34,572 bases of DNA, from positions 1-34,572 of IMG/VR virus record IMGVR_UViG_3300031631_000011. One strand, given 5' to 3'. The notes under the pieces were generated by a model, which worked only from the letters and a program-made list of their open reading frames with translations, was not told where the DNA came from and did not search any database. Origin of the DNA: a virus. The translations under genes and the position numbers were made by a program. Positions within the stretch are counted from its first letter, which is position 1; every line of letters begins with the position of its first letter. Shown in pieces: positions 5,843-34,220 of the stretch.

Positions 5843-6448
5843 TTAAAAGGCTATTTGTTTTACCATTGCGTCAATCTCAGCGAGAACTGCGAGCTGGTAA
5901 TTGTGAAACTTCTCGATCTCTTCAGCAATATCTTCACGCTTTATCGTAATGTAATGAAGTTGTTTTGAAGGTATCCGTGGATCATAGAACGCAAACACAA
6001 GTGATTCAAGCTCTTCGTCCACAATGAAATATTGCATTGCTTGATCTTCGTAATCAGCAGGGATTTTTTGTTCAAAATATGCCATCAAGTGTTTCGCACT
6101 TGCCAAACATTTCACTTCAAACGCAATCTTCTTGGCACCTTGTCGTCCGTCCATTGAAACAGCGATATTCTCGTTGTCGTCACGAACACAGAATCCGGGT
6201 CGTTCAATTTCTCCGAACTCTTTTTCCAATTCCTCAATCGCTTCGTCTTCAAGTCTGGTCCCACGAGCCATTGGATTCTCTTCGTCTTTTGGTATCCCGA
6301 TCCGTTCTGCAAGTAATTCGTAATACCCGATTTTCTTATTGTTTCCTCGTCGCACAATTATTCCGTGCAACTTGGATCCAGTAATTTTTCCTTTTCTGAG
6401 GTCTTGCCATTCCTCTGTGTTCTGTTCTACGTCTTGAAAGATTTTCAT
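5843..6448 (-). CDS. YqaJ/lambda-Exo-like 5'-3' exonuclease
   Basis: 201 residues, the usual length for phage YqaJ-type nucleases. The opening QNTEEWQDLRKGKITGSKLH is the typical W..R.G.iTgS start. Residues 61-70 read ARGTRLEDEA, supplying the family Glu. D100 in VSMDG and E111-V-K113 in AFEVKCL form the PD-(D/E)xK active site with spacing like lambda exonuclease. It resects double-stranded ends to give single strands for the annealing protein encoded immediately upstream (ATGA overlap at 6445-6448). Together they form a Red-like two-component recombination system. Confidence 0.88.
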   Translation of the reverse strand: MKIFQDVEQNTEEWQDLRKGKITGSKLHGIIVRRGNNKKIGYYELLAERIGIPKDEENPMARGTRLEDEAIEELEKEFGEIERPGFCVRDDNENIAVSMDGRQGAKKIAFEVKCLASAKHLMAYFEQKIPADYEDQAMQYFIVDEELESLVFAFYDPRIPSKQLHYITIKREDIAEEIEKFHNYQLAVLAEIDAMVKQIAF

Positions 6449-12138: not shown

Positions 12139-14874
12139 TTAGTTCTTGTATTCCGTGTAACCCTGATAAAGACTGATTGTGTTGTCTGTTTCAGCACTAG
12201 CCCATTGAGCTGTAATCTTTATATCCATATTCGCCGTTGTGTCGATTGTCGCTATTCCTGCCATCGAAGTAATATCTCCTCGAGCAGTAGCGTCTCCAAC
12301 TTCTAGATGAATATGAACTGCTCTTTGTCCTGACGCTCCGATAGTTCTCTGAGTAGCATTAGCACTCATATGCCAGTCTTGGTCTGTTAACTGTCTTGTG
12401 TTTGTTTCTAAGGTAGCAACTGGTGTTTCACTTGCTCCAACATATATTCTTAAAGTAACTTCATCTCCAGCAGTTCCACTATCGTTAGTAACTATTCCAT
12501 CACAATGAACTTTAAAGACATTTCCAGCTTCTAAACTATTCGCTGCGATTGGAGCTGTATAAAGAGTTGTTTCAGTTGTTGTGTCTGCAACTGTTACTGT
12601 TGATAATTGAACATCTCCTGTCCTGTCTATCGCTTTTTGCTTAGCGTTATTAGTTATATAGATTTTGCCATTATAATATTCAATACTACCAGCTTCAGGA
12701 GTTGAGAGTTTTACTCCTGCTGTTAATTTCAAAGGAGGATTCGTTGCTGTTCCTGCTGCTAAGTGTAAGAGGGCTGTCGGACTCGCCGTCCCGATGCCGA
12801 CGTTTCCGTCGCTGTCTATCCTGACCTTTTCTGTTGTTCCAATACCAAATCTATAATCTGCAAAATCTCCTCTAAAGGAAGTATAAGTTCCTCCAACACG
12901 ATTATAACCCTGTAATAATTCAACATTAGTAGTAATTCCAGGTATAATTTCAATCCCTTCAGCTCCAGCATTTGAAACAACTAAATTAGCATTCGGACTC
13001 GTCGTCCCGATACCGACGTTGCCAGAGGATTTTATTATCATCTTCGCATCCGCGTAAGAAGCGTCCGATGAATCGGCGGTATTGTTATTCGCAAAATATA
13101 AATCTCCGACAGCAAATGCGCCTGTTTCTTTAAAGGCTACCAAACCTTTTGAAGTGGTGGCTCCATTTGCAGAAGAAAAAAGTATTCCAGCTTCATCACC
13201 AGTAGTACTCCTCTCATCCTGAACTTTTATATAGGTATTCCCAGATGCCCCCCGAACGTGCAATTTTTGTTCGGGACTCGCCGTCCCGATGCCGACGTTG
13301 CCTGAGTTATCTATACTTATCCCCTCTGCTCCTCCATCTCCACTTATCCAACTATTGTGCGTATTAATTATTTTATTCGTTCCATCACTTTGAAATGTGA
13401 TATATTCTGTCGGATTACCATAACCAGTTAAACCTGGACCCAATAAATCAACTTTCGCAGTATTCCATCCTGAAGCAGTAAATTGTGACCTTATTCCACC
13501 TATATTTATAATATTAGGCACTCCTCCTCCTACACCATCCTTTGATACAGAAACATATAAGTTAGCTATGCTATTTGCTCCCACATTATTAAAAACTCGT
13601 GCAGAAGTTATTACATCTAACTTCGCCCCAGGACTCGCCGTCCCGATGCCGACGTTGCCTGATGTTCCATCAATCCTCATTCTTTCGGTAGCGTTTGTTC
13701 CCAAAACCAACGTTTTAGTTCCTTGAGTATAAATTTCAAAAATTCCAGGACCAGTTCCACTAAATAATTGGAGTGGATAGTTTGTTCCTGAAATACCTGC
13801 ATAATTCCCTTTTTGTCTTGAATAAAGATTATATAGGTTTGCACTAAAACCAGTCACAACATTATTATCATCTGCAACGTTACTTCCAGACACATCAAGT
13901 TTTCCCCCTGGACTCGTAGTGCCGATGCCGACGTTGCCTCCAGTGGGGTTAAGCGCTAAATTCTGGTCTGTTCCATCAGAAAGTTTATACCCTTGAATTG
14001 CTCCAATAGTAGCAATAGCCCCAATCTTTACACCTCGGTTTATGTAACTACTTCCTATTTGAGATAAGTAAGTAACTGACGATAGACCAGAAGTTACTTC
14101 CAACTTCGCCCCCGGACTCGCCGTCCCGATGCCGACGTTGCCTGATGTTCTATCAATCGTCATTCTAGTATTAACTGTTGCACTTGTACCAGATTTAATA
14201 AATAATTTATTCTCCCCTCCATCATGAACAATTTGAAAACCACTACCCGTTGTTCCAAATTTAGATACACCAAGGGTAGCAGTTGGAGCTTCCATAAAAT
14301 CAATACCTGAATCCCCTCCATTGTCGGTTTCTACTAATATATTAGGGTCTGAGAGACTAGCTATATGAAGTATTTCTTGAGGACTCGTCGTCCCGATGCC
14401 GAAATTCCCAGAGTTTACATATCCCCCGACACCACTTAACGGTTCGGAAAACAAAGCTACTGTTGAAGAAGCTGCAGCATTTAACATATAAAATCTTCCC
14501 TCTGCTCCCCCTGATGATTGACTAAATAAAAATCTATCAGCACCAGTCGCCCTATCGGTAAAGACTACTTTCTCTCCTGCGTTCAATGCGACATCTAATT
14601 TCTCAGAAGGTGTGATAGTACCTATTCCAACATTGTTGTCCAAATAAACCGCGTCAAGAGGGTCTGTACCGTCTACGAATTTACCGCCAGAGCTTCCACT
14701 GTCAAACCAACCTGTTGTGTCTGTATCCCATACCCAAATTGTGTCAGTTGTTCCGACCGTAGCAAACCAGCCATCTTCTCCGACTGGATATGCAGCATTT
14801 AGGGCCGCTTCGGTTAAGAAGTATCCTTTGTCGTTTCCTGTGCCACCGATCCCGCCTTCTCCGAGAATAATCAT
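12139..14874 (-). CDS. Tail fibre with eight GIGT-type repeats
   Basis: 911 residues. The start (MIILGEGGIGGTGNDKGYFL, then AYPVGEDGWFATVGTTDTIW) is a small domain common at the N-terminus of phage fibres. Eight copies of a motif like SGNVGIGTASPGAKLDV punctuate the shaft; intervening segments differ in sequence and length. The motif is typical of trimeric fibre shafts in phages and bacterial surface proteins. The C-terminal 170 residues (from about LSTVTVADTTTETTLYTAPI) lack repeats and form the probable receptor-binding head; no S74 chaperone motif is evident. The start overlaps the upstream virion gene by ATGA. Confidence 0.85.
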   Translation of the reverse strand: MIILGEGGIGGTGNDKGYFLTEAALNAAYPVGEDGWFATVGTTDTIWVWDTDTTGWFDSGSSGGKFVDGTDPLDAVYLDNNVGIGTITPSEKLDVALNAGEKVVFTDRATGADRFLFSQSSGGAEGRFYMLNAAASSTVALFSEPLSGVGGYVNSGNFGIGTTSPQEILHIASLSDPNILVETDNGGDSGIDFMEAPTATLGVSKFGTTGSGFQIVHDGGENKLFIKSGTSATVNTRMTIDRTSGNVGIGTASPGAKLEVTSGLSSVTYLSQIGSSYINRGVKIGAIATIGAIQGYKLSDGTDQNLALNPTGGNVGIGTTSPGGKLDVSGSNVADDNNVVTGFSANLYNLYSRQKGNYAGISGTNYPLQLFSGTGPGIFEIYTQGTKTLVLGTNATERMRIDGTSGNVGIGTASPGAKLDVITSARVFNNVGANSIANLYVSVSKDGVGGGVPNIINIGGIRSQFTASGWNTAKVDLLGPGLTGYGNPTEYITFQSDGTNKIINTHNSWISGDGGAEGISIDNSGNVGIGTASPEQKLHVRGASGNTYIKVQDERSTTGDEAGILFSSANGATTSKGLVAFKETGAFAVGDLYFANNNTADSSDASYADAKMIIKSSGNVGIGTTSPNANLVVSNAGAEGIEIIPGITTNVELLQGYNRVGGTYTSFRGDFADYRFGIGTTEKVRIDSDGNVGIGTASPTALLHLAAGTATNPPLKLTAGVKLSTPEAGSIEYYNGKIYITNNAKQKAIDRTGDVQLSTVTVADTTTETTLYTAPIAANSLEAGNVFKVHCDGIVTNDSGTAGDEVTLRIYVGASETPVATLETNTRQLTDQDWHMSANATQRTIGASGQRAVHIHLEVGDATARGDITSMAGIATIDTTANMDIKITAQWASAETDNTISLYQGYTEYKN

Positions 14875-16493: not shown

Positions 16494-16913
16494 ATGGAAA
16501 AAATAAAAACCCAACGAACAGATAAGGCACAAAGTACTTCGTTCTCTGCCCATTTCAGGCAAGTAGACAAGTCAGGCAAGTCATACTTCCTACATCCCCT
16601 CGAAATCGCCTTAAAAATGACCTCAGAGTCCGCCGTGATAGTTGCATTCCTCCATGACGTATTCGAGGATACTGACCTTCAAATTCGAGAAGTGGAATAT
16701 CTCAGAGAATCAGAAAGGGTTGCCCTCAAACTTCTTACAAAAAGAAGGGAGCAGTACTATGAAGATTACATTGCTGGAATAAAGGAAAACAAACTCGCAA
16801 CAGAAGTAAAAATTGAAGATCTCAAGCACAATCTGAAAGACAGAGGGTGGACACCGCCACCAGAACGAATTGCAAAATACAAAAAAGCCCTTAAACTTTT
16901 AAGTGATGAATAA
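16494..16913 (+). CDS. RelA/SpoT-type HD hydrolase (small alarmone hydrolase-like)
   Basis: 139 residues containing only an HD domain. H20 in SAHF, H34 in SYFLHPLEIA, H54-D55 in AFLHDVFEDT (with E58-D59) and D109/N113 in KIEDLKHNL match the order of metal and catalytic residues in the hydrolase domain of RelA/SpoT and Mesh1 proteins. The expected reaction is removal of pyrophosphate from (p)ppGpp. There is no synthetase domain. It is the first gene of the only plus-strand unit, under its own early-type promoter and almost leaderless. Phage enzymes of this kind could lower host alarmone levels during infection; that role is inferred. Another nucleotide substrate is possible. Confidence 0.82.
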   Translation: MEKIKTQRTDKAQSTSFSAHFRQVDKSGKSYFLHPLEIALKMTSESAVIVAFLHDVFEDTDLQIREVEYLRESERVALKLLTKRREQYYEDYIAGIKENKLATEVKIEDLKHNLKDRGWTPPPERIAKYKKALKLLSDE

Positions 16914-17070
16914 AATTGACAAAGGAGTAATAAGCTATCCAGAAGGAGAACCAACTGGAAAAGAAGAAAAACCATTCTTGATTACTTACAAAAACGGTAA
17001 GACGCTTCGAGGTATGGCTTCAGGGCTTGACAACAGCGAATGGGAAAATGGTGTCAAAGGTTCTTCGTAG
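16906..17070 (+). CDS. Small ORF coupled to the HD hydrolase, 54 aa
   Basis: The 54-residue ORF starts MNKIDKGVISYPEGEPTGKE and ends in SGLDNSEWENGVKGSS. Its ATG lies within the last codons of the HD gene (8-bp overlap), indicating translational coupling. It resembles a small beta-rich, charged protein (FLITYKNGKTLRG). The 3' end overlaps the converging virion gene by 17 bp. No family is recognised. It might partner or modulate the hydrolase, by position only. Confidence 0.5.
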   Translation: MNKIDKGVISYPEGEPTGKEEKPFLITYKNGKTLRGMASGLDNSEWENGVKGSS

Positions 17071-20000
17071 GAAGCGAACCGTGTTTTTCCATTTCTCTCA
17101 TAAAATCAAGGGCTTCTCCACGAGTCTTGAATTTTAGTCGTTTCCCTCCCATTCCAGTACCAATCGAATTCACGCTGATCACTGGTACGATTTCGTCACG
17201 AGCTTCCATTGCTTTCAGGACAGAGGTTCTGAAGTCTTTATGCTTTTCCTCGAATATTTCCCTTGGCACCTTTCTTCCACGGAATTCAACGAATCTCCAC
17301 GCTTGATCTTTGTCTGCATAAACCATATTCAGTCGTGGTGTTTTCCCTGCTTCAATGACTTGATCAACATTTCTGAGAAGTTTTTTGAAGTTGGCTCCAG
17401 TTCCGTCAAGAATAAGCTCCGCACTTCCATTGATACCATTGACACCATTGATAAGAACTTCCGTCTTTCCGCTTCCTGATCCTCCAGAAGTAAGGTCAAC
17501 AAATTTCCCCCTAACCTTTGGCAGTCCTTCAGCAAACGCTTCTTGAGCGAGTCTTGAGCTTTCAGCGTGGTAAAGTGGAGCGTTGTCTGGAGTGGACCCA
17601 AGAATTGTTTTGATATTATCAGCGTCAATTATTGCGGTACCTTTTTTATTTGGAGTGAGTACTTTCTTGATAACTTCTTTATCTGATACACCAGTCGAAC
17701 CGGGAAACCCAGAGCTTCCAGTTTTTTTTGAATCATCAAAGAATTTCGCAATCGTCATATCTTTACCGAACTTTTGTTTCAATCCAGCAGTAAGACCCCT
17801 TGGTGTGGTGTATTCAATACCCAGTTTCTTGAGTTCTGCCTTGAGAAATTTGTCTTCGTCCAATGCTTTCACGAAATCTCCGAGCGTATCGTATTTACTC
17901 GCTTTATCAGCAAGCGTATCAATGTTCGCTTTCTTCACAATCTTTTGAGCTGGCTTTTTTACCGTAACTTTAGGTTTTTTTTTTGGAACAATCTTGATTG
18001 GTTTTGCGTTTTTCTCTTTGATCAATGAAGTCTTGAGATTATCGAATTTCTTTTTTCCGAGACTCTTCAGCAATTTCTGTCCCATTTCTCCACCAAAGAA
18101 CTTCGCCAAAATGTACTCAGCAACCAATGAGGTTCCACCAGAGAATACTCCTACACCACCTCTCAAAAGATTTATGTTCTGTAAGATTGCTGTCTGACTT
18201 CCCTGTCCGATTGAAACGGATTTGGCAAGAGCCGCATTCAGAGTGTCCAAGTTCTGCAATAGTTTTACTTGGTCAGGTGTGAAAACAGCGGAAAGTTTTT
18301 CTTGTCCGATTGATTTTAACTGTTTGGAGAATCCAGAAGGTGTAAAGCCTTCCCCTCCAGCCCTTCGAGACTTCTTTATGATATTTGCCAAGAATCTCTT
18401 TTGTAACTGCCTCTCAATATCTTTTCCGAGGGTTTGATACATTATTTTGATTTCATTCGCTGAAACGCTTGTTTTTGTCAGCATTTCGGAAATCGTGTCG
18501 AAATCTCCCTTCTCAGTGAGTTTTTTTATCTTCTGTACGAATGGTCGGGCCTTGACCTTCTCGAACCCACGGAACATCTTATTTGCCTTGTCCAGTGGTG
18601 CTTTCATCTGTGGCAATACTTCGCCAAGAGATTGATCAAAGTCCTTTCTCATCGAGTGGTACATTTTTCGCCAAATTTTCTCTTCCGTGGAAGGTGCAAA
18701 AGATTTGAAGTTTGCTTTGTCTCCAATCTCTCGAAGAACCGCTCTTCGTTGTACAACTGTCTGAGTTTCATCAAACCCTTTTCGCAAATTTCTGAGGAAT
18801 GGAAGCTCCGGGGAAGGTACCCCAACTTCTTCTGCAAGTCCTTTCTGTTCGATAAGGTCGTCCAAAAGTTTCATTGTTGGAGAGTCTTTTTTGAATACCA
18901 TCGTGACACCCTTCGTGTCAGCAAGCTCTTCAGCAGAAGCGTAAAGGTCGTCGATTGTTTTTCGATACGCCTTTTCAACCTGTGAAAATTTATTTGCAAT
19001 ATTTTCTCCAAGCTCTCCCGCAGACGGAGCAGATTTTTCAATTCCTGTCACAACATCGTCGAATTTCGCCAGAGACTTATTGGCTCGTTTACTGATAGCT
19101 CCTCCGAACAATCCCTGTCCGAGTATCTGTTCAGTTTTTGAAGCCAGTGGAATCGAAGTTGCTGACGCTGAAAGTTCAATACCAAGTGCCTTTGCTATCG
19201 CTTCAGCTTCATTTTCTGCTACCTCTCCAGCTTTCATTGCTTTTTTCAATACCGCTGGCTTTTCTGCCTTTGGCACTCCTTCAAACATTTTTTTGAACTT
19301 TGAAAGATTTGGTACTTCTATTTTTGAAACAACTTCGGCTCCAGCTTCAAGTCCAGCTTTCAATCCAGCCTTTGCTTCTTGTATTCCAACATCGACACCT
19401 TTTCCAACAACTTTTTTACCAGCACCGCCAGTCAATACATCAATGGCAAATTGTCCAAGATTCCCAGCGAGTCGGTAAGATCTTGCTCCTTCTGGATCTC
19501 GTGCTTCGTATTCGTCCCATGCTTTCCCAACTTCGACCACTGCGTCCGCAACAGTTTTTCCACCTGTCCCATGTATAGGAGAATCAGCAACCCCTTTGCC
19601 AGCGTCTTTCATTATTCCAGCAATCTTGTCTTCCGTTTTTTGTGTAAAAGGAAGTTTCATTGCGGTCATAAAGATTGCACCAACATAATCTCCAGCGGTT
19701 CCGAGCAACTGACCGGCAGTTTCCTTTGCCAGTTCTTGTGTTTGTTTTGTATCCGTCATATCCGTTTTTACAGCAAGGTCGGAAAGAATATCTCCCCTTT
19801 CTTCTGCTCTTTCAGCAATGCCTTCTCCAGCTTCTCGAATATCATTCGGAGCGTCTGCAACTGCTCTTGGAAGAGCTGTGAGTCCTTCAACAAAAGGATT
19901 GTCTACCAAGTTTTTTCCAAAACGCTTCATAAAGCTATCTCCAGTGACTTCCGGCTGTTGAATTCCTGATCGTTCCAAGTCCCTACTCATTGAATTTTCT

Positions 20001-20251
20001 GCCCGAAGTTCTTTGTCTTCGATTAACCTTTGCTTTCTTGCCTCAATTCTATCGAATACAGACTCTTTTGGCTCTTCGATGGTTGGTTGTACCACTTCTG
20101 GTGTTAAGTCCTCCACAACTGGTTGTGTGACCTCTGGTGTTGCCATTCGTCTGGCACCAGCAAAAATCTCTCGCATTTCTTCAGCAGAAGGTTTGCGATT
20201 TTTAGGGGTTTGTACCCCCATTCCAGCCATGATTTCATCAAATTCAGCCAT
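17054..20251 (-). CDS. Large virion (ejection/polyvalent) protein with C-terminal zeta-toxin-like P-loop kinase domain
   Basis: 1,065 residues. The N-terminal 300 residues are acidic and Ala/Gly-rich with helical stretches (ETAGQLLGTAGDYVGAIFMT). The middle is a long helical region and a Lys/Pro-rich linker follows (about 750-775). The C-terminal domain, about 890-1065, has a Walker A motif GGSGSGKTE (K929) after DLTSG. ELILDGTGANFKKLL and RLNMVYADKDQAWRFVEFRG come next, with VPREIFEEKHKDF, an arrangement like zeta toxins (UDP-GlcNAc kinases). Next to a gene of similar size with a transglycosylase domain, it looks like a protein carried in the virion and injected with DNA. Kinase activity and delivery are inferences. 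Confidence 0.72.
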   Translation of the reverse strand: MAEFDEIMAGMGVQTPKNRKPSAEEMREIFAGARRMATPEVTQPVVEDLTPEVVQPTIEEPKESVFDRIEARKQRLIEDKELRAENSMSRDLERSGIQQPEVTGDSFMKRFGKNLVDNPFVEGLTALPRAVADAPNDIREAGEGIAERAEERGDILSDLAVKTDMTDTKQTQELAKETAGQLLGTAGDYVGAIFMTAMKLPFTQKTEDKIAGIMKDAGKGVADSPIHGTGGKTVADAVVEVGKAWDEYEARDPEGARSYRLAGNLGQFAIDVLTGGAGKKVVGKGVDVGIQEAKAGLKAGLEAGAEVVSKIEVPNLSKFKKMFEGVPKAEKPAVLKKAMKAGEVAENEAEAIAKALGIELSASATSIPLASKTEQILGQGLFGGAISKRANKSLAKFDDVVTGIEKSAPSAGELGENIANKFSQVEKAYRKTIDDLYASAEELADTKGVTMVFKKDSPTMKLLDDLIEQKGLAEEVGVPSPELPFLRNLRKGFDETQTVVQRRAVLREIGDKANFKSFAPSTEEKIWRKMYHSMRKDFDQSLGEVLPQMKAPLDKANKMFRGFEKVKARPFVQKIKKLTEKGDFDTISEMLTKTSVSANEIKIMYQTLGKDIERQLQKRFLANIIKKSRRAGGEGFTPSGFSKQLKSIGQEKLSAVFTPDQVKLLQNLDTLNAALAKSVSIGQGSQTAILQNINLLRGGVGVFSGGTSLVAEYILAKFFGGEMGQKLLKSLGKKKFDNLKTSLIKEKNAKPIKIVPKKKPKVTVKKPAQKIVKKANIDTLADKASKYDTLGDFVKALDEDKFLKAELKKLGIEYTTPRGLTAGLKQKFGKDMTIAKFFDDSKKTGSSGFPGSTGVSDKEVIKKVLTPNKKGTAIIDADNIKTILGSTPDNAPLYHAESSRLAQEAFAEGLPKVRGKFVDLTSGGSGSGKTEVLINGVNGINGSAELILDGTGANFKKLLRNVDQVIEAGKTPRLNMVYADKDQAWRFVEFRGRKVPREIFEEKHKDFRTSVLKAMEARDEIVPVISVNSIGTGMGGKRLKFKTRGEALDFMREMEKHGSLPTKNL

Positions 20252-23200
20252 TTTGAGTTATTGTTTTACGAAGTGTGTTGCTACTTACTGACGCTTTATT
20301 CAGTCCGTCCCCTTGATAATAACTTTTATCTGACGAGTCCGTCGGAAGAGAAGCCCACTCCTGAGAGAGTCTACGCTGTAATTCTTCCATATCAATTTTT
20401 CCTTCTAAAAACTCATTCCAACCTCTTCGTTCCAGAAGTTTCTCTGCCATCTGGTCTTGAAGCTCTGGAGTGAATTTCTCGTCCCCAGTCAGTCCCATTT
20501 CTTTTTGAAGTCCTGTAAGAGTCTTTTGAAGAAATTGGTATTTTCCAACAGCACTTGAAGGGGATCCTCCGAAAACCTGCTCCGTCTGATACTGACTGAC
20601 TTCTTTCAAAGTCTTACCAGAGAAATCAATTTCCGTTTGGTTTGCGTCCCCAAATACAGCGTTGTACTGTCCTTCCGCTTCAGCGTCCCCAATCAAGTCA
20701 AGAAGTTCTCCCTTTCCAGAAGAAGCTCCGGGACCACCCAAATATTCGTCAATCTCGTCACGAGTCACATCTGTATACCCGCCTCGAACCGCTGTACCCA
20801 TTTCATTGCTGTTCTCAAACCCAAAGGTTGTTGTTTTTTCGTCAATAGCGTCTTGAATATCCTCAAGGTAACGATCCATCTGGTCTTCAAACTGAGTACT
20901 GTTTTGACCAATATTCGGTTTGTTCTTTGAAAGTCGTTGTGCTTCTGCTTCTGAGACAGCCGCTCCTGACATTCTCTTTATGTAATCTGCCAAGATTTCT
21001 CCAGAAAGTGCTTCCAGTTCGTTGTAAATTTTAAGCTCTTTTGACGGTTTTCCTCCGAGTCCTTGCCATACTCTTGACGCTTGCCTTGATCCTTTGTCCA
21101 ACGCTCCTTCAAACGGTCTTGGACCAGCCTCCGCAACCAATTCTGCATATTTCGCCAGCATTGCTTTTGCGTTTCTTTCTTCGTCCAAAAGAGAAGTAAG
21201 ATTTTCAGGAATTTTCACATCTGCTTGATATTTTTTGTTTCCACCACCCTTTGATTGTCGAATTGCAATTACAGCGTCAAGCTCTCCTTCCGTTGTAGTT
21301 TCTGGCAATCCGAATGCTTGTGCTTGTTTATCACTGATTTTCGTTCCCAGTTTGATTGCTTCAGCAAATTTGTCTCCCCAACCTTCTTTGAAGGCTCGTT
21401 CTTCCATTGCTTCCATGTTTCGGTTTGTGATCCGTCCAGTTTTTACTCGTAAGAGAGCAGATTCCATTCGTCCACTGACAACATCGCCACCAGCACTTAC
21501 TCCGTCTTCAAGTAATGCTTTATTCTTCAGGTATTGAGTTGCTTCTTTTGGCTCCATATCTCCAGCCAAGAATCGTGCGTCAAGTTCTGCTTCCGTCGCT
21601 GGTTTGTCTTCCCCACCGTCGAAATCTTCTTTCAACAAGGCTCTTGCTTCGTCTTTGACACCCTCACTGAGTGTCGGACTGATAATCATTGCACCAAGTT
21701 GTTTTTTCTTGAAGTCGTCTGAATACCCCATATCGTCAAGTTGCTCCATGAATTTACCAACTTCATCTGGATCCGTAACTTCTCCAGCCCAGAAATCAGC
21801 GATTGTTGACTTCACATCTTTTCGTGCGATTTGTTCTTCGCTCCAGTTATTTTTCGCAAGGAATTCATCACGAAGTGCTTTCGCTTGAAATTCTCCGTAT
21901 CGAACCTTCATTGCGTTGTACGCTTTATCTGAGTTCTTTCCAGCCGCTTGATAAACCTTCTCGAATTGGTTTTCCATAGCAATTCCGCTTTCATCAAGGC
22001 CACTGATAAAGTTGTTCAATTTTAATTTATCCGGGTCGCTCTTCATCATTGAGTATTCTCGCTCCACTTGAGCAAGTGCAACCATCGGAGTAAGACCTTC
22101 TTTCTTGAGTTGATTCAATCGATCAACTTTTGCTTTTGAAATTTCTTCAGAAAAAGAAAGTGTTTTCTTTGCTCCGAGTGCGTCGAATTGTGTCTGGACA
22201 TCAATCTGTCTGCTCTTCTCGCTTGTAATAGCTGCGTCGAGCATATCATCAACGGTGTCCGTCATTTCTTCGTCGTCCGTGTTGTACTGAATCTGGAGTT
22301 TTTGTAATTCAGCTTTCCCCTGTTCAGTGATTCCTCCGTCTGGAGTTCGGTGTTGATTTTTTACACGGTCTGAGTTGATCCGAAAATTCTCGTCCATGAT
22401 TTCACGAGCTTTCTCTTCTTTCTTACGAACCTTGTCTTCAGCTCGTTTTATTGGGTCAACATCTTCCCCTGTCTCGTCCTTGAGGTAATAAGAACCGTCC
22501 TCACGCATTTCTACACGATCCCCAGCCTCAGCTCCCATAAATTGTTTTACTTTGAACATGTGGTCAGCTACATCTCCAGATTTAACTTTTCCAGTAGCAG
22601 GGTCAATAAAACTTGTTGCAACCGCACTATCAACAACACCTTCTCTTTGTTCGTCAGTAATACGAACATTGATACCCTTTGCTCGTGCCGCTTTCTGATC
22701 CGCTGAAAGGTCTGATTCTGAAAACTCAATCGTTTCTTTTACTCGTTCTGCTTCTGGAAGATTTGCATTGAATCTTTTTTCTTCCTCTGACATTGCTGTA
22801 AAGGCTGGATTTATTTTTTCTCCAAGCCCTCCAATATTTCCGAGTTCAGATTCTTTACCCTTTCTTTTGAAAGTTTCCTCTCTGTTCGTTCTTTTGTCGC
22901 TTTCTTGTTGGCTTCTGATATTTACAGTTTCCGCTGCAATAGCGTTTGCCTGTTTAGTAGCTTGGTCACGCTCCCAGTTTGAAACACGAAGTTGATAATC
23001 TTTCCCACTTTCCGTTGCACCCAGTCTTGGAGCAGAGGCTTCAAGGTAACTATAATCTTGTGCTGTCGTAACTTTTGGAAGTTTCGCAACTTGATTTTGA
23101 GCGTATTGATTCACACTGGTTGTCTTGTTCGCAGTAGAACCACCAGAAGAAATGTATTTATCCTTTATCAATTTTTCTGTTCCAGATAATTCTCCATCGA

Positions 23201-23387
23201 GCTTGTCCCCTCGTTTTATAGAGTTTGCTCCATACAATTCAGAAGCCAAGTCTGGATTGTCTTTTGAAACGATTGGTACACCGTCTTGTGTAAACCCAGC
23301 ACCAGTATTCGGTGCTGAAGAAATTGGCTTCACTCTTATACAGCGATTCCCAACAAGTGTGTATCCAGTTCGACAGGTTTTAGCCAT
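20244..23387 (-). CDS. Large internal virion protein with C-terminal lambda-R-like (GH104) transglycosylase
   Basis: 1,047 residues. The start MAKTCRTGYTLVGNRCIRVK has two Cys. A very long charged helical body follows. The C-terminal domain (about 895-1040) has Glu905 in AEAEGQYNAVFGD, then SSAVGKYQFLQKTLTGLQKE, FTPELQDQMAEKLLERRGWN and LSQEWASLP. This order matches lambda endolysin R: a Glu, then S.asGrYQ.L...w...k...gL, then spnlQD..A...i.erG, then a WASLP end. A virion-associated lysin that opens peptidoglycan at DNA entry, analogous to T7 gp16, is inferred. The stop overlaps the next large virion gene by 8 bp. Confidence 0.8.
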   Translation of the reverse strand: MAKTCRTGYTLVGNRCIRVKPISSAPNTGAGFTQDGVPIVSKDNPDLASELYGANSIKRGDKLDGELSGTEKLIKDKYISSGGSTANKTTSVNQYAQNQVAKLPKVTTAQDYSYLEASAPRLGATESGKDYQLRVSNWERDQATKQANAIAAETVNIRSQQESDKRTNREETFKRKGKESELGNIGGLGEKINPAFTAMSEEEKRFNANLPEAERVKETIEFSESDLSADQKAARAKGINVRITDEQREGVVDSAVATSFIDPATGKVKSGDVADHMFKVKQFMGAEAGDRVEMREDGSYYLKDETGEDVDPIKRAEDKVRKKEEKAREIMDENFRINSDRVKNQHRTPDGGITEQGKAELQKLQIQYNTDDEEMTDTVDDMLDAAITSEKSRQIDVQTQFDALGAKKTLSFSEEISKAKVDRLNQLKKEGLTPMVALAQVEREYSMMKSDPDKLKLNNFISGLDESGIAMENQFEKVYQAAGKNSDKAYNAMKVRYGEFQAKALRDEFLAKNNWSEEQIARKDVKSTIADFWAGEVTDPDEVGKFMEQLDDMGYSDDFKKKQLGAMIISPTLSEGVKDEARALLKEDFDGGEDKPATEAELDARFLAGDMEPKEATQYLKNKALLEDGVSAGGDVVSGRMESALLRVKTGRITNRNMEAMEERAFKEGWGDKFAEAIKLGTKISDKQAQAFGLPETTTEGELDAVIAIRQSKGGGNKKYQADVKIPENLTSLLDEERNAKAMLAKYAELVAEAGPRPFEGALDKGSRQASRVWQGLGGKPSKELKIYNELEALSGEILADYIKRMSGAAVSEAEAQRLSKNKPNIGQNSTQFEDQMDRYLEDIQDAIDEKTTTFGFENSNEMGTAVRGGYTDVTRDEIDEYLGGPGASSGKGELLDLIGDAEAEGQYNAVFGDANQTEIDFSGKTLKEVSQYQTEQVFGGSPSSAVGKYQFLQKTLTGLQKEMGLTGDEKFTPELQDQMAEKLLERRGWNEFLEGKIDMEELQRRLSQEWASLPTDSSDKSYYQGDGLNKASVSSNTLRKTITQNG

Positions 23388-32744: not shown

Positions 32745-34220
32745 TTAAAGATTTACTCCAAACCGAGTATAGTTATCCTCCACTGGAGCGTCAAACTGTT
32801 CTCGTGCATGGGGCTTTTCTGCTACTTGTGATTGGTACGCTGCTGAATCTGAAGCGTCGTCGTTTTGACTACTTGGGAAGCGTAACAGCTCTCCCTCAAG
32901 GTCTTTGCATTCTCCCTCAATATGAAATATTGATCCAGAGGTGTATCTTGGAATGAGGCCACGAATTCGAGTCTCTTTTTTAGTTCCCCCATGTTTCAGA
33001 GGTACCATTTTAATAAATGTATTTCTCTTTCGCATTTCCTCTTCCAAGAACGGTAAAATTGCAATAGTGAATGTTGTCTCTTCCAGCCCTATACACTCAA
33101 GCCCTTTCGGACTCCAGTGGTTCCAAAGCTCGAAAAACTTGTCGAACAGTTCGCCGCTGTTCAAGTGTTCTCTCCAAGATTTGAAGTGCCACTTGTTCTG
33201 ATCGTCAACCCAATTCATCGTGAAACCGCAGAAATCTGCTCCTTCGTCTTTCTTTACTGCTGAATCGACGGTTAAAAAGAGTCTTGTTGTCTTCTCCATT
33301 ACACGAGACATTTTGATAGGTAAGAAATATTCTGACTTGAACTCCCTATTTGCTCCCGTAACTGGATCACACATATATTCTCCATACCAATCCTCTGCGT
33401 CGAGTCTGATTGCTGTACATTTCTCCTCAGTGAAGTAATCCCAAGTCGGGACTCCGCATTCATCGAGAAGAGGTACAATAATCTCTTCAACATTTTTGGA
33501 TCGCATATTTTGTATCACTCCAATATCAGTAATGTAATTTGCGGTACACATATAGCTCCCATCAACTGAAAGCCCCTGTATCGCTTCATCAACCTTGCTG
33601 ATAATGTTTTGAGTAATCGTATCTGAGTCCGCAGAATCCCTGTCTTCAATATCGTCGAACCATATCAGGTCTGGACGAAAAGCGTCTTGAACATGACCAC
33701 GCTGAGTTTGACCAACTGTTCCAGCCGCTAATTTGACACCGTTCCGCATTGTGAAGGATCCCATTGTTTCCTCCCTTTTTTTATTTGAATCGTTCAAGAA
33801 CATATCTCCGTAAATATGACGAACCTCAATCATAAGATTGTAAATATCCGTCACAACCTGTTTTGAATTCTTCCCATCTTTTGTAAGGACCTTCAAATAT
33901 TTTCTGGAAGCGTCTTCATCGTTCAACAATGCAAACGAATAAAAGAGCTTCGCAAGAGTTGTTTTGGCACAACCACGAAAAGCAATGTTCAGAAAGTTCT
34001 TCTCTCCACGGTATGCACGAATGTATCCGAGAATCATTCGCTTGTGGAATGGTGCCGGGGTATGTGCAAAATATCGTGGGTAATTCGTCGTGAAAAGCTG
34101 ATACTTCTTGAATACGGCCTCTTCAGAGTCTTTTGAACTGAATCCGAACAACGCTTTCTTCTGAACAGCAGTTCCAGAAAAGAGTATTTTTTTGATTCCT
34201 TGTTTATCCCCCTCTGTCAT
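32745..34220 (-). CDS. terL: Terminase large subunit
   Basis: 491 residues. Walker A FRGCAKTTLAK (about 81-91) and Walker B DLIWFDDIED (about 184-193) with the catalytic acidic pair form the packaging ATPase. TAN in YMCTANYIT (about 223-231) is the coupling motif. The nuclease half has Asp319 in LTVDSAVKKDEGAD, Glu in IGLEETTF (about 380), and an acidic cluster QNDDASDS near 455, as in RNase H-fold terminase nucleases. It cuts and translocates phage DNA into the prohead through the portal. The RG.AKTT Walker A is of the T4/T7-like type. It is separated from the small subunit by 73 bp. Confidence 0.95.
   Translation of the reverse strand: MTEGDKQGIKKILFSGTAVQKKALFGFSSKDSEEAVFKKYQLFTTNYPRYFAHTPAPFHKRMILGYIRAYRGEKNFLNIAFRGCAKTTLAKLFYSFALLNDEDASRKYLKVLTKDGKNSKQVVTDIYNLMIEVRHIYGDMFLNDSNKKREETMGSFTMRNGVKLAAGTVGQTQRGHVQDAFRPDLIWFDDIEDRDSADSDTITQNIISKVDEAIQGLSVDGSYMCTANYITDIGVIQNMRSKNVEEIIVPLLDECGVPTWDYFTEEKCTAIRLDAEDWYGEYMCDPVTGANREFKSEYFLPIKMSRVMEKTTRLFLTVDSAVKKDEGADFCGFTMNWVDDQNKWHFKSWREHLNSGELFDKFFELWNHWSPKGLECIGLEETTFTIAILPFLEEEMRKRNTFIKMVPLKHGGTKKETRIRGLIPRYTSGSIFHIEGECKDLEGELLRFPSSQNDDASDSAAYQSQVAEKPHAREQFDAPVEDNYTRFGVNL

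What the first reader, a model, noticed from the sequence alone, without database searches (positions are those of the whole stretch)
17054..20251. Virion protein of 1,065 residues ending in a zeta-toxin-like kinase domain
The C-terminal 175 residues carry a Walker A GGSGSGKTE and an order of motifs like zeta toxins, which phosphorylate UDP-N-acetylglucosamine. Being the tail of a long structural-looking protein, beside a transglycosylase-bearing virion protein, it fits the polyvalent-protein idea: effector domains injected with DNA. Attacking cell-wall precursor supply or competing phages at entry are possible roles. No epsilon-like antitoxin gene is recognisable.
Basis: partly seen in the sequence, partly recalled or inferred. 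Interest (0 to 1): 0.74.

Follow-up and report, generated by a model that had tools for sequence, protein, structure and literature searches.

The report
Virion-borne rewired zeta kinase domain
A large phage protein, probably injected into the bacterium together with the viral DNA, ends in a kinase of the zeta-toxin type whose sequence blocks are swapped, as in one known toxin that poisons cell-wall precursors; known parts in a little-noticed combination.

Summary
The open reading frame is real: 1,065 codons at 17054-20251, on the minus strand. The kinase call is right, but the stated motif order is wrong. In ordinary zeta toxins the catalytic-Asp block follows the Walker A. Here it precedes it (IIDADNIK...HAESSRLA, then GGSGSGKT, then LILDGTG). 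This is the 'topologically rewired' order of ng_zeta1, a 4'-OH UDP-sugar kinase with a solved structure. A profile of ten phage domains matches ng_zeta1 at E 9e-17 over its length, and the predicted structure matches it at Z 17, against Z 11 for classical zeta. Asp878, Lys881, Lys929 and Arg993 are kept; the arginine loop is shortened. About 80 IMG/VR contigs carry the rewired domain: at C-termini of large proteins, in polyvalent proteins, fused to a minor capsid protein, or alone. In the nearest relative of this phage the syntenic gene has a related N-terminus and no kinase, so the kinase looks like removable cargo. The slot resembles that of podoviral ejection proteins. Most likely it enters with the DNA and phosphorylates UDP-sugars; substrate and delivery are inferred. 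Zeta-like kinases in polyvalent proteins (2017) and the rewired fold (2018) are known; this member links them.

The parts
17054..20251 (-). 1,065-aa protein (P0001) carrying the kinase at its C-terminus
   Evidence: Open frame, ATG at 20251, stop at 17054-17056; start overlaps the stop of the upstream gene by 8 bases
19457..20098 (-). N-terminal region (res. 52-265) related to the syntenic 577-aa protein of the closest relative, which has no kinase
   Evidence: 29% identity, pairwise E 2e-4; synteny in L049
17057..17650 (-). rewired zeta-type kinase domain, about res. 868-1065
   Evidence: Profile of relatives without the window E 3e-18, res. 867-1019 aligned; AlphaFold2 model pLDDT 85.7, pTM 0.83; Z 17.1 to 6eph
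17516..17638 (-). displaced block (res. 872-912): beta strand with catalytic Asp878 and Lys881, then HAESSRLA helix; lies after the Walker A in classical zeta toxins
   Evidence: Alignment A5 and PDB profile alignment, Asp878 = ng_zeta1 Asp56, Lys881 = Lys59; the same block of relative L042 alone matches Zeta_toxin profile 49-93, E 0.0022
17462..17485 (-). Walker A GGSGSGKT (res. 923-930), Lys929
   Evidence: Sequence; aligned with Lys115 of ng_zeta1
17201..17422 (-). third block (res. 944-1017): LILDGTG strand to arginine loop and GR motif (Arg993); arginine loop shortened
   Evidence: Pfam Zeta_toxin profile 96-172; 72-sequence alignment
20244..23387 (-). upstream 1,047-aa probable ejection protein with C-terminal transglycosylase (res. 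about 903-1041, 20265-20681)
   Evidence: 1am7 lambda lysozyme E 3.3e-4, PHROG 430 E 8e-7; 50% identity to relative only to res. 587
12139..14874 (-). downstream tail-fibre protein
   Evidence: PHROG 18345 tail fiber, E 2.5e-31

Best explanation
The C-terminal ~200 residues are an active zeta-family P-loop kinase of the topologically rewired ng_zeta1 class, carried as cargo at the end of a podovirus-type ejection protein. The protein is packaged in the head and passes into the cell with or ahead of the DNA, where the neighbouring protein's transglycosylase opens the wall. In the cytoplasm the kinase uses ATP to phosphorylate UDP-activated sugars (probably UDP-MurNAc/UDP-GlcNAc, at the 4'-OH), removing cell-wall precursors at the start of infection. 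Shown here: fold class, block order, conserved catalytic residues, cargo-like presence and absence, gene slot. Inferred: packaging, entry, substrate and benefit to the phage.
For: Rewired order in the window and in 69 of 72 distinct domains, the other three being truncated fragments. A phage-only profile (which includes the window domain) hits ng_zeta1 (6eph) at E 9.4e-17 over positions 10-233, with no classical zeta toxin listed at E <= 0.1. Model best matches 6eph/6epg/6epi: Z 17.1, 189-191 residues, 2.7-2.9 A, from model residue 1 to 206, against Z 11.0 for 1gvn/3q8x and 10.6 for PezT. ng_zeta1's rewired topology, 4'-OH activity and residues Asp56, Lys59, Lys115, Arg175, Arg181 are described in PMC5923241. 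In the relatives Asp56 is kept in 69/69, Lys115 in 71/71, Arg181 in 72/72, a basic residue at 59 in 69/69. Cargo logic: the closest syntenic relative lacks the domain. Gene slot: in contig L104 the order tail protein, endolysin-domain protein, zeta polyvalent protein, tail fibre recurs. T7 gp16, in the comparable slot, is ejected and is modelled to reach the cytoplasm (PMC8954989).
Against: No virion proteomics; the N-terminal 740 residues match no known ejection protein. The arginine loop is shorter than in the relatives, so the Arg175 equivalent (Arg986 or Arg991) is uncertain, and Asn75, which binds the carboxyethyl group of UDP-MurNAc, is not conserved by alignment. Only one clear enzymatic domain is present. 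Host unknown, so wall type is unknown.
Confidence: 0.6

Rival explanations
1. Same rewired zeta fold and same delivery, but the substrate is not a cell-wall precursor: for example NAD, as for the zeta-related effector AvrRxo1, or another nucleotide, serving counter-defence or nucleotide metabolism.
For: AvrRxo1 structures score Z 8.8-9.0 and AvrRxo1 is reported to phosphorylate NAD (PMC5491322, PMC5087710). The residue that favours UDP-MurNAc (Asn75) is not conserved and the arginine loop is shortened.
Against: The model is far closer to ng_zeta1 (Z 17) than to AvrRxo1 (Z 9); Lys881 sits where ng_zeta1 Lys59 holds UDP-MurNAc.
Confidence: 0.22
2. The protein is a structural or ejection protein in which the kinase is degenerate or only structural, using ATP binding for assembly.
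For: Shortest arginine loop of the sequences aligned, divergent VYADKD motif, absence of the domain from the closest relative.
Against: The core catalytic residues and the complete Walker A are kept, and the model is confident over most of the domain.
Confidence: 0.1
3. A toxin of a toxin-antitoxin pair or an early protein made after infection, not packaged.
For: Stand-alone ~300-aa rewired kinases exist in many viral contigs, and ng_zeta1 itself is a TA toxin.
Against: Fused to ~860 other residues, overlapping a virion-type gene and followed by the tail fibre; downstream small ORFs match no antitoxin; a fusion to a minor capsid protein exists (L041).
Confidence: 0.06
4. Unrelated P-loop family, such as polynucleotide or nucleotide kinase.
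For: Polynucleotide kinases score Z about 10.
Against: Zeta_1 toxin is the top solved match by sequence profile (E 9e-17) and by fold (Z 17), and it shares the block order.
Confidence: 0.02

Closest known systems
ng_zeta1 (Zeta_1 toxin of Neisseria gonorrhoeae, PDB 6EPG/6EPH/6EPI; PMC5923241)
   Same: Swapped block order, fold over the whole domain, catalytic Asp, P-loop Lys, Lys59 and Arg181 equivalents
   Different: ng_zeta1 is a plasmid TA toxin with an extended antitoxin and an OB domain; here the kinase ends a 1,065-aa phage protein, with no recognised antitoxin, no room for an OB domain, a shortened arginine loop, and Asn75 not conserved
Classical epsilon/zeta and PezT (1GVN, 3Q8X, 2P5T; Pfam Zeta_toxin PF06414)
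   Same: Superfamily, P-loop kinase fold, third block matches the Pfam model
   Different: Block order; lower structural score (Z 11); classical members phosphorylate the 3'-OH of UDP-GlcNAc (PMC5923241)
Zeta-like kinases in polyvalent proteins and MuF fusions (Iyer et al. 2017, PMC5512222)
   Same: Zeta-type kinase as part of a large protein thought to be injected by phages or conjugative elements
   Different: That paper's main text has no word beginning 'permut'; this protein shows no second recognisable enzymatic domain or LPD domain
T7 gp16 / podoviral ejection proteins (PMC8954989)
   Same: Gene slot before the tail fibre, similar size, beside or bearing a transglycosylase
   Different: No detectable sequence similarity; the transglycosylase lies in the neighbouring protein; no kinase is mentioned in that review

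Membership tests
Zeta_toxin superfamily (PF06414) | Match above the curated Pfam cut-off | tested here: met
   26.7 bits whole protein, 34.5 bits domain; cut-off 22.3
Classical zeta/PezT (3'-OH UDP-GlcNAc kinases) | Walker A first, catalytic-Asp block after it | tested here: not met
   Asp block at res. 872-912 precedes Walker A at 923; Pfam best stretch covers only 96-172
ng_zeta1 rewired subclass | Asp block before Walker A, third block directly after it | tested here: met
   Profile alignment to 6eph in sequential order, E 9.4e-17; fold Z 17.1 over model residues 1-206
ng_zeta1 rewired subclass | Catalytic Asp56, P-loop Lys115, Lys59 | tested here: met
   Asp878, Lys929, Lys881
ng_zeta1 rewired subclass | Arg175 and Arg181 phosphate patch | tested here: inconclusive
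   Arg993 = Arg181; the Arg175 equivalent is Arg986 or Arg991 in a shortened loop
ng_zeta1 rewired subclass | Asn75 contacting UDP-MurNAc | tested here: inconclusive
   No Asn in the aligned position; Asn890 lies next to it
ng_zeta1 rewired subclass | 4'-OH UDP-sugar kinase activity | not testable with these tools
   Needs an enzyme assay
epsilon/zeta TA systems | Cognate antitoxin encoded alongside | tested here: inconclusive
   Two small same-strand ORFs downstream have no Pfam, PADLOC or credible PDB match; antitoxins diverge fast
Polyvalent proteins | Several disparate effector domains in one virion-delivered protein | tested here: inconclusive
   Only the kinase is recognisable in P0001; relatives L015, L104, L106 carry further polyvalent-type domains
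Podoviral ejection proteins | Present in the virion and ejected | not testable with these tools
   Only position and size were tested

The most novel reading that the evidence does not exclude
The rewired zeta kinases are mainly a phage and mobile-element weapon delivered with DNA, of which the gonococcal TA toxin is a domesticated branch; in this phage group the kinase disarms the cell wall or a nucleotide-based defence at the moment of entry, with no antitoxin needed because the dose is limited to the few injected copies.
Probability: 0.25. Interest if true: 0.75.

Novelty: new member of a known kind. Interest (0 to 1): 0.5.

Why it matters
It ties together two separate literatures: the rewired 4'-OH zeta kinases (2018 paper; 'phage' does not occur in its main text) and the zeta-like kinases of phage polyvalent proteins (2017 paper; no 'permut' in its main text). 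If the kinase is ejected and active, a phage would be draining cell-wall precursors at entry, and an existing biochemical assay with a solved template makes that testable. It also shows that reading by the usual motif order misplaces the catalytic residue: a construct starting at residue 880 would lack it.

Tried and rejected
Single-sequence search of PDB with the domain gave only noise; profiles were needed. Single-protein scans of IMG/VR with the domain and with the whole protein found no relatives, and genome-contig scans found nothing, so the host stays unknown; terminase against named phages gave only a 31% partial hit in an Alcaligenes phage. I first took the block swap for a new circular permutation; the fold search and PMC5923241 showed that it is known. 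Polynucleotide, adenylate and other P-loop kinases were considered and rejected on score and block order. Foldseek alone gave poor TM alignments to classical zeta, as expected for swapped blocks. PADLOC found nothing. The N-terminal 740 residues have no credible match in Pfam, PHROGs or PDB. The second structure-prediction job was not used, since the N-terminus lacked an alignment deep enough to give a reliable model.

Full report
What is there. The ORF at 17054-20251 is on the minus strand and encodes 1,065 residues. Its start overlaps the stop of the preceding 1,047-aa gene by eight bases. The window is a virus record: terminase large subunit at 32745-34220 and a tail-fibre protein at 12139-14874 frame the block of virion-type genes, all on the minus strand.

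The domain is a zeta-family kinase with swapped blocks. Pfam finds Zeta_toxin (E 4.4e-6), but its best stretch covers only profile positions 96-172. Reading the sequence shows why: IIDADNIK...HAESSRLAQEAF, the strand with the catalytic aspartate and the following helix, stands before GGSGSGKT, and LILDGTG follows the Walker A almost at once. In classical proteins such as L039 and L047 the Asp block follows the Walker A. Relatives make the swap plain. In several viral contigs PF06414 matches in pieces that jump from about profile position 35-51 (Walker A part) to 93-100 with few residues between, and the block before the Walker A of relative L042, scanned alone, matches profile positions 49-93 (E 0.0022). 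A profile of the relatives without the window aligns to window residues 867-1019 in one piece at E 3e-18, while none of 200 shuffles is reported.

The swap is known. AlphaFold2 on ten window and IMG/VR sequences gave a confident model (pLDDT 85.7, pTM 0.83). Its best solved match is the gonococcal epsilon_1/zeta_1 complex: Z 17.1, 189-191 residues at 2.7-2.9 A, against Z 11.0 for classical zeta, 10.6 for PezT, about 10 for polynucleotide kinase and 9 for AvrRxo1. By sequence profile, ten phage domains alone reach 6eph at E 9.4e-17, and 15 phage plus plasmid domains reach it at 1e-43. The paper on ng_zeta1 (PMC5923241) describes two sequence blocks that exchanged places, phosphorylation of the 4'-OH of UDP-MurNAc, UDP-GlcNAc and UDP-glucose, lysis of E. 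coli on expression, and the residues involved. In the window Asp878 aligns with Asp56, Lys881 with Lys59, Lys929 with Lys115 and Arg993 with Arg181. The loop carrying the Arg175 equivalent is shorter than in the relatives, so that residue is Arg986 or Arg991, and Asn75 is not conserved by alignment. Activity is therefore likely, but the exact substrate is open.

Distribution. Scans with alignments brought in about 80 viral contigs, a few of them seen in more than one scan, and 22 plasmid records matched one phage member. Of the plasmid proteins read, those from Burkholderia, Sphingobium and Methylomonas have the rewired order, while those from Enterobacter, Kosakonia and Shewanella are classical. 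Among 72 distinct domains (69 from phage sequences, 3 from plasmids) 69 show the rewired order; the other three are truncated fragments (one sequence missed by the pattern rule was checked by its printed positions). The domain occurs alone (~300 aa, in L061 near terminase and portal genes), at C-termini of 800-1,400-aa proteins, fused to a minor capsid protein (L041), and inside larger proteins with GNAT plus LPD38 (L015), an LPD22-like region just under its cut-off (L104) or ddrB-ParB (L106). Zeta-like kinases in polyvalent proteins and MuF fusions were already noted by Iyer et al. (PMC5512222), who proposed a weakened cell wall as the benefit; a search of that main text for 'permut' found nothing.

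Cargo and slot. The closest relative found (G001; terminase 70%, the 401-aa protein taken to be the major capsid protein 74% identical) has the same gene order, and in the slot of P0001 a 577-aa protein related to the N-terminal part (29%, pairwise E 2e-4) that stops before the kinase. The preceding protein is 50% identical up to residue 587 and then carries a different C-terminus in place of the lambda-lysozyme-like transglycosylase of the window. Both neighbours thus seem to exchange C-terminal modules. In contig L104 the order tail protein, endolysin-domain protein, zeta-bearing protein, tail fibre recurs. In T7 the gene before the tail fibre encodes gp16, an ejected protein modelled to reach the cytoplasm (PMC8954989; the gene position is general knowledge). 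This is why I take P0001 to be an ejected protein; it has not been seen in virions.

Mechanism. Shown: fold class, order, residues, presence/absence, slot. Inferred: packaging, passage into the cytoplasm, phosphorylation of UDP-sugars, and a benefit such as easier wall passage, growth arrest or exclusion of rivals. No antitoxin is recognisable, which is not surprising for a protein delivered in few copies. The main rival is another substrate, above all NAD, because the zeta-related AvrRxo1 phosphorylates NAD (PMC5491322).

Verdict. Real, correctly spotted as zeta-like, wrongly described as having the classical motif order, and known in its parts. It is a new member of the rewired zeta kinases in a setting (a podovirus-like ejection slot) that makes entry-time attack on cell-wall precursors testable.

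Noticed in passing
window 16494-16913 (+ strand): 139-aa ORF on the opposite strand, matching a (p)ppApp hydrolase (7smg, E 2e-14) and RelA/SpoT hydrolase domains, with a promoter-like site just upstream (11 of 12); in the closest relative only about 100 bases separate the flanking genes.
   Followed up: partly
window 20244-23387 and L049 12745-15882: The neighbouring virion-type protein keeps its first ~587 residues at 50% identity but has a different C-terminal module in the relative.
   Followed up: partly
L041 1040-2788: Phage minor capsid protein 2-like region (just under the Pfam cut-off) fused to a rewired zeta kinase; its Walker A reads GGAGSCKT.
   Followed up: no
L056-L092: Many IMG/VR contigs carry a stand-alone ~300-aa rewired kinase, in the one contig tested (L061) upstream of terminase and portal genes.
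   Followed up: partly
L045 3884-5116: On a Burkholderia conjugative plasmid a rewired zeta kinase gene lies beside conjugation genes.
   Followed up: no
window 5843-6448: YqaJ-like viral recombinase (Pfam E 6.8e-13).
   Followed up: no
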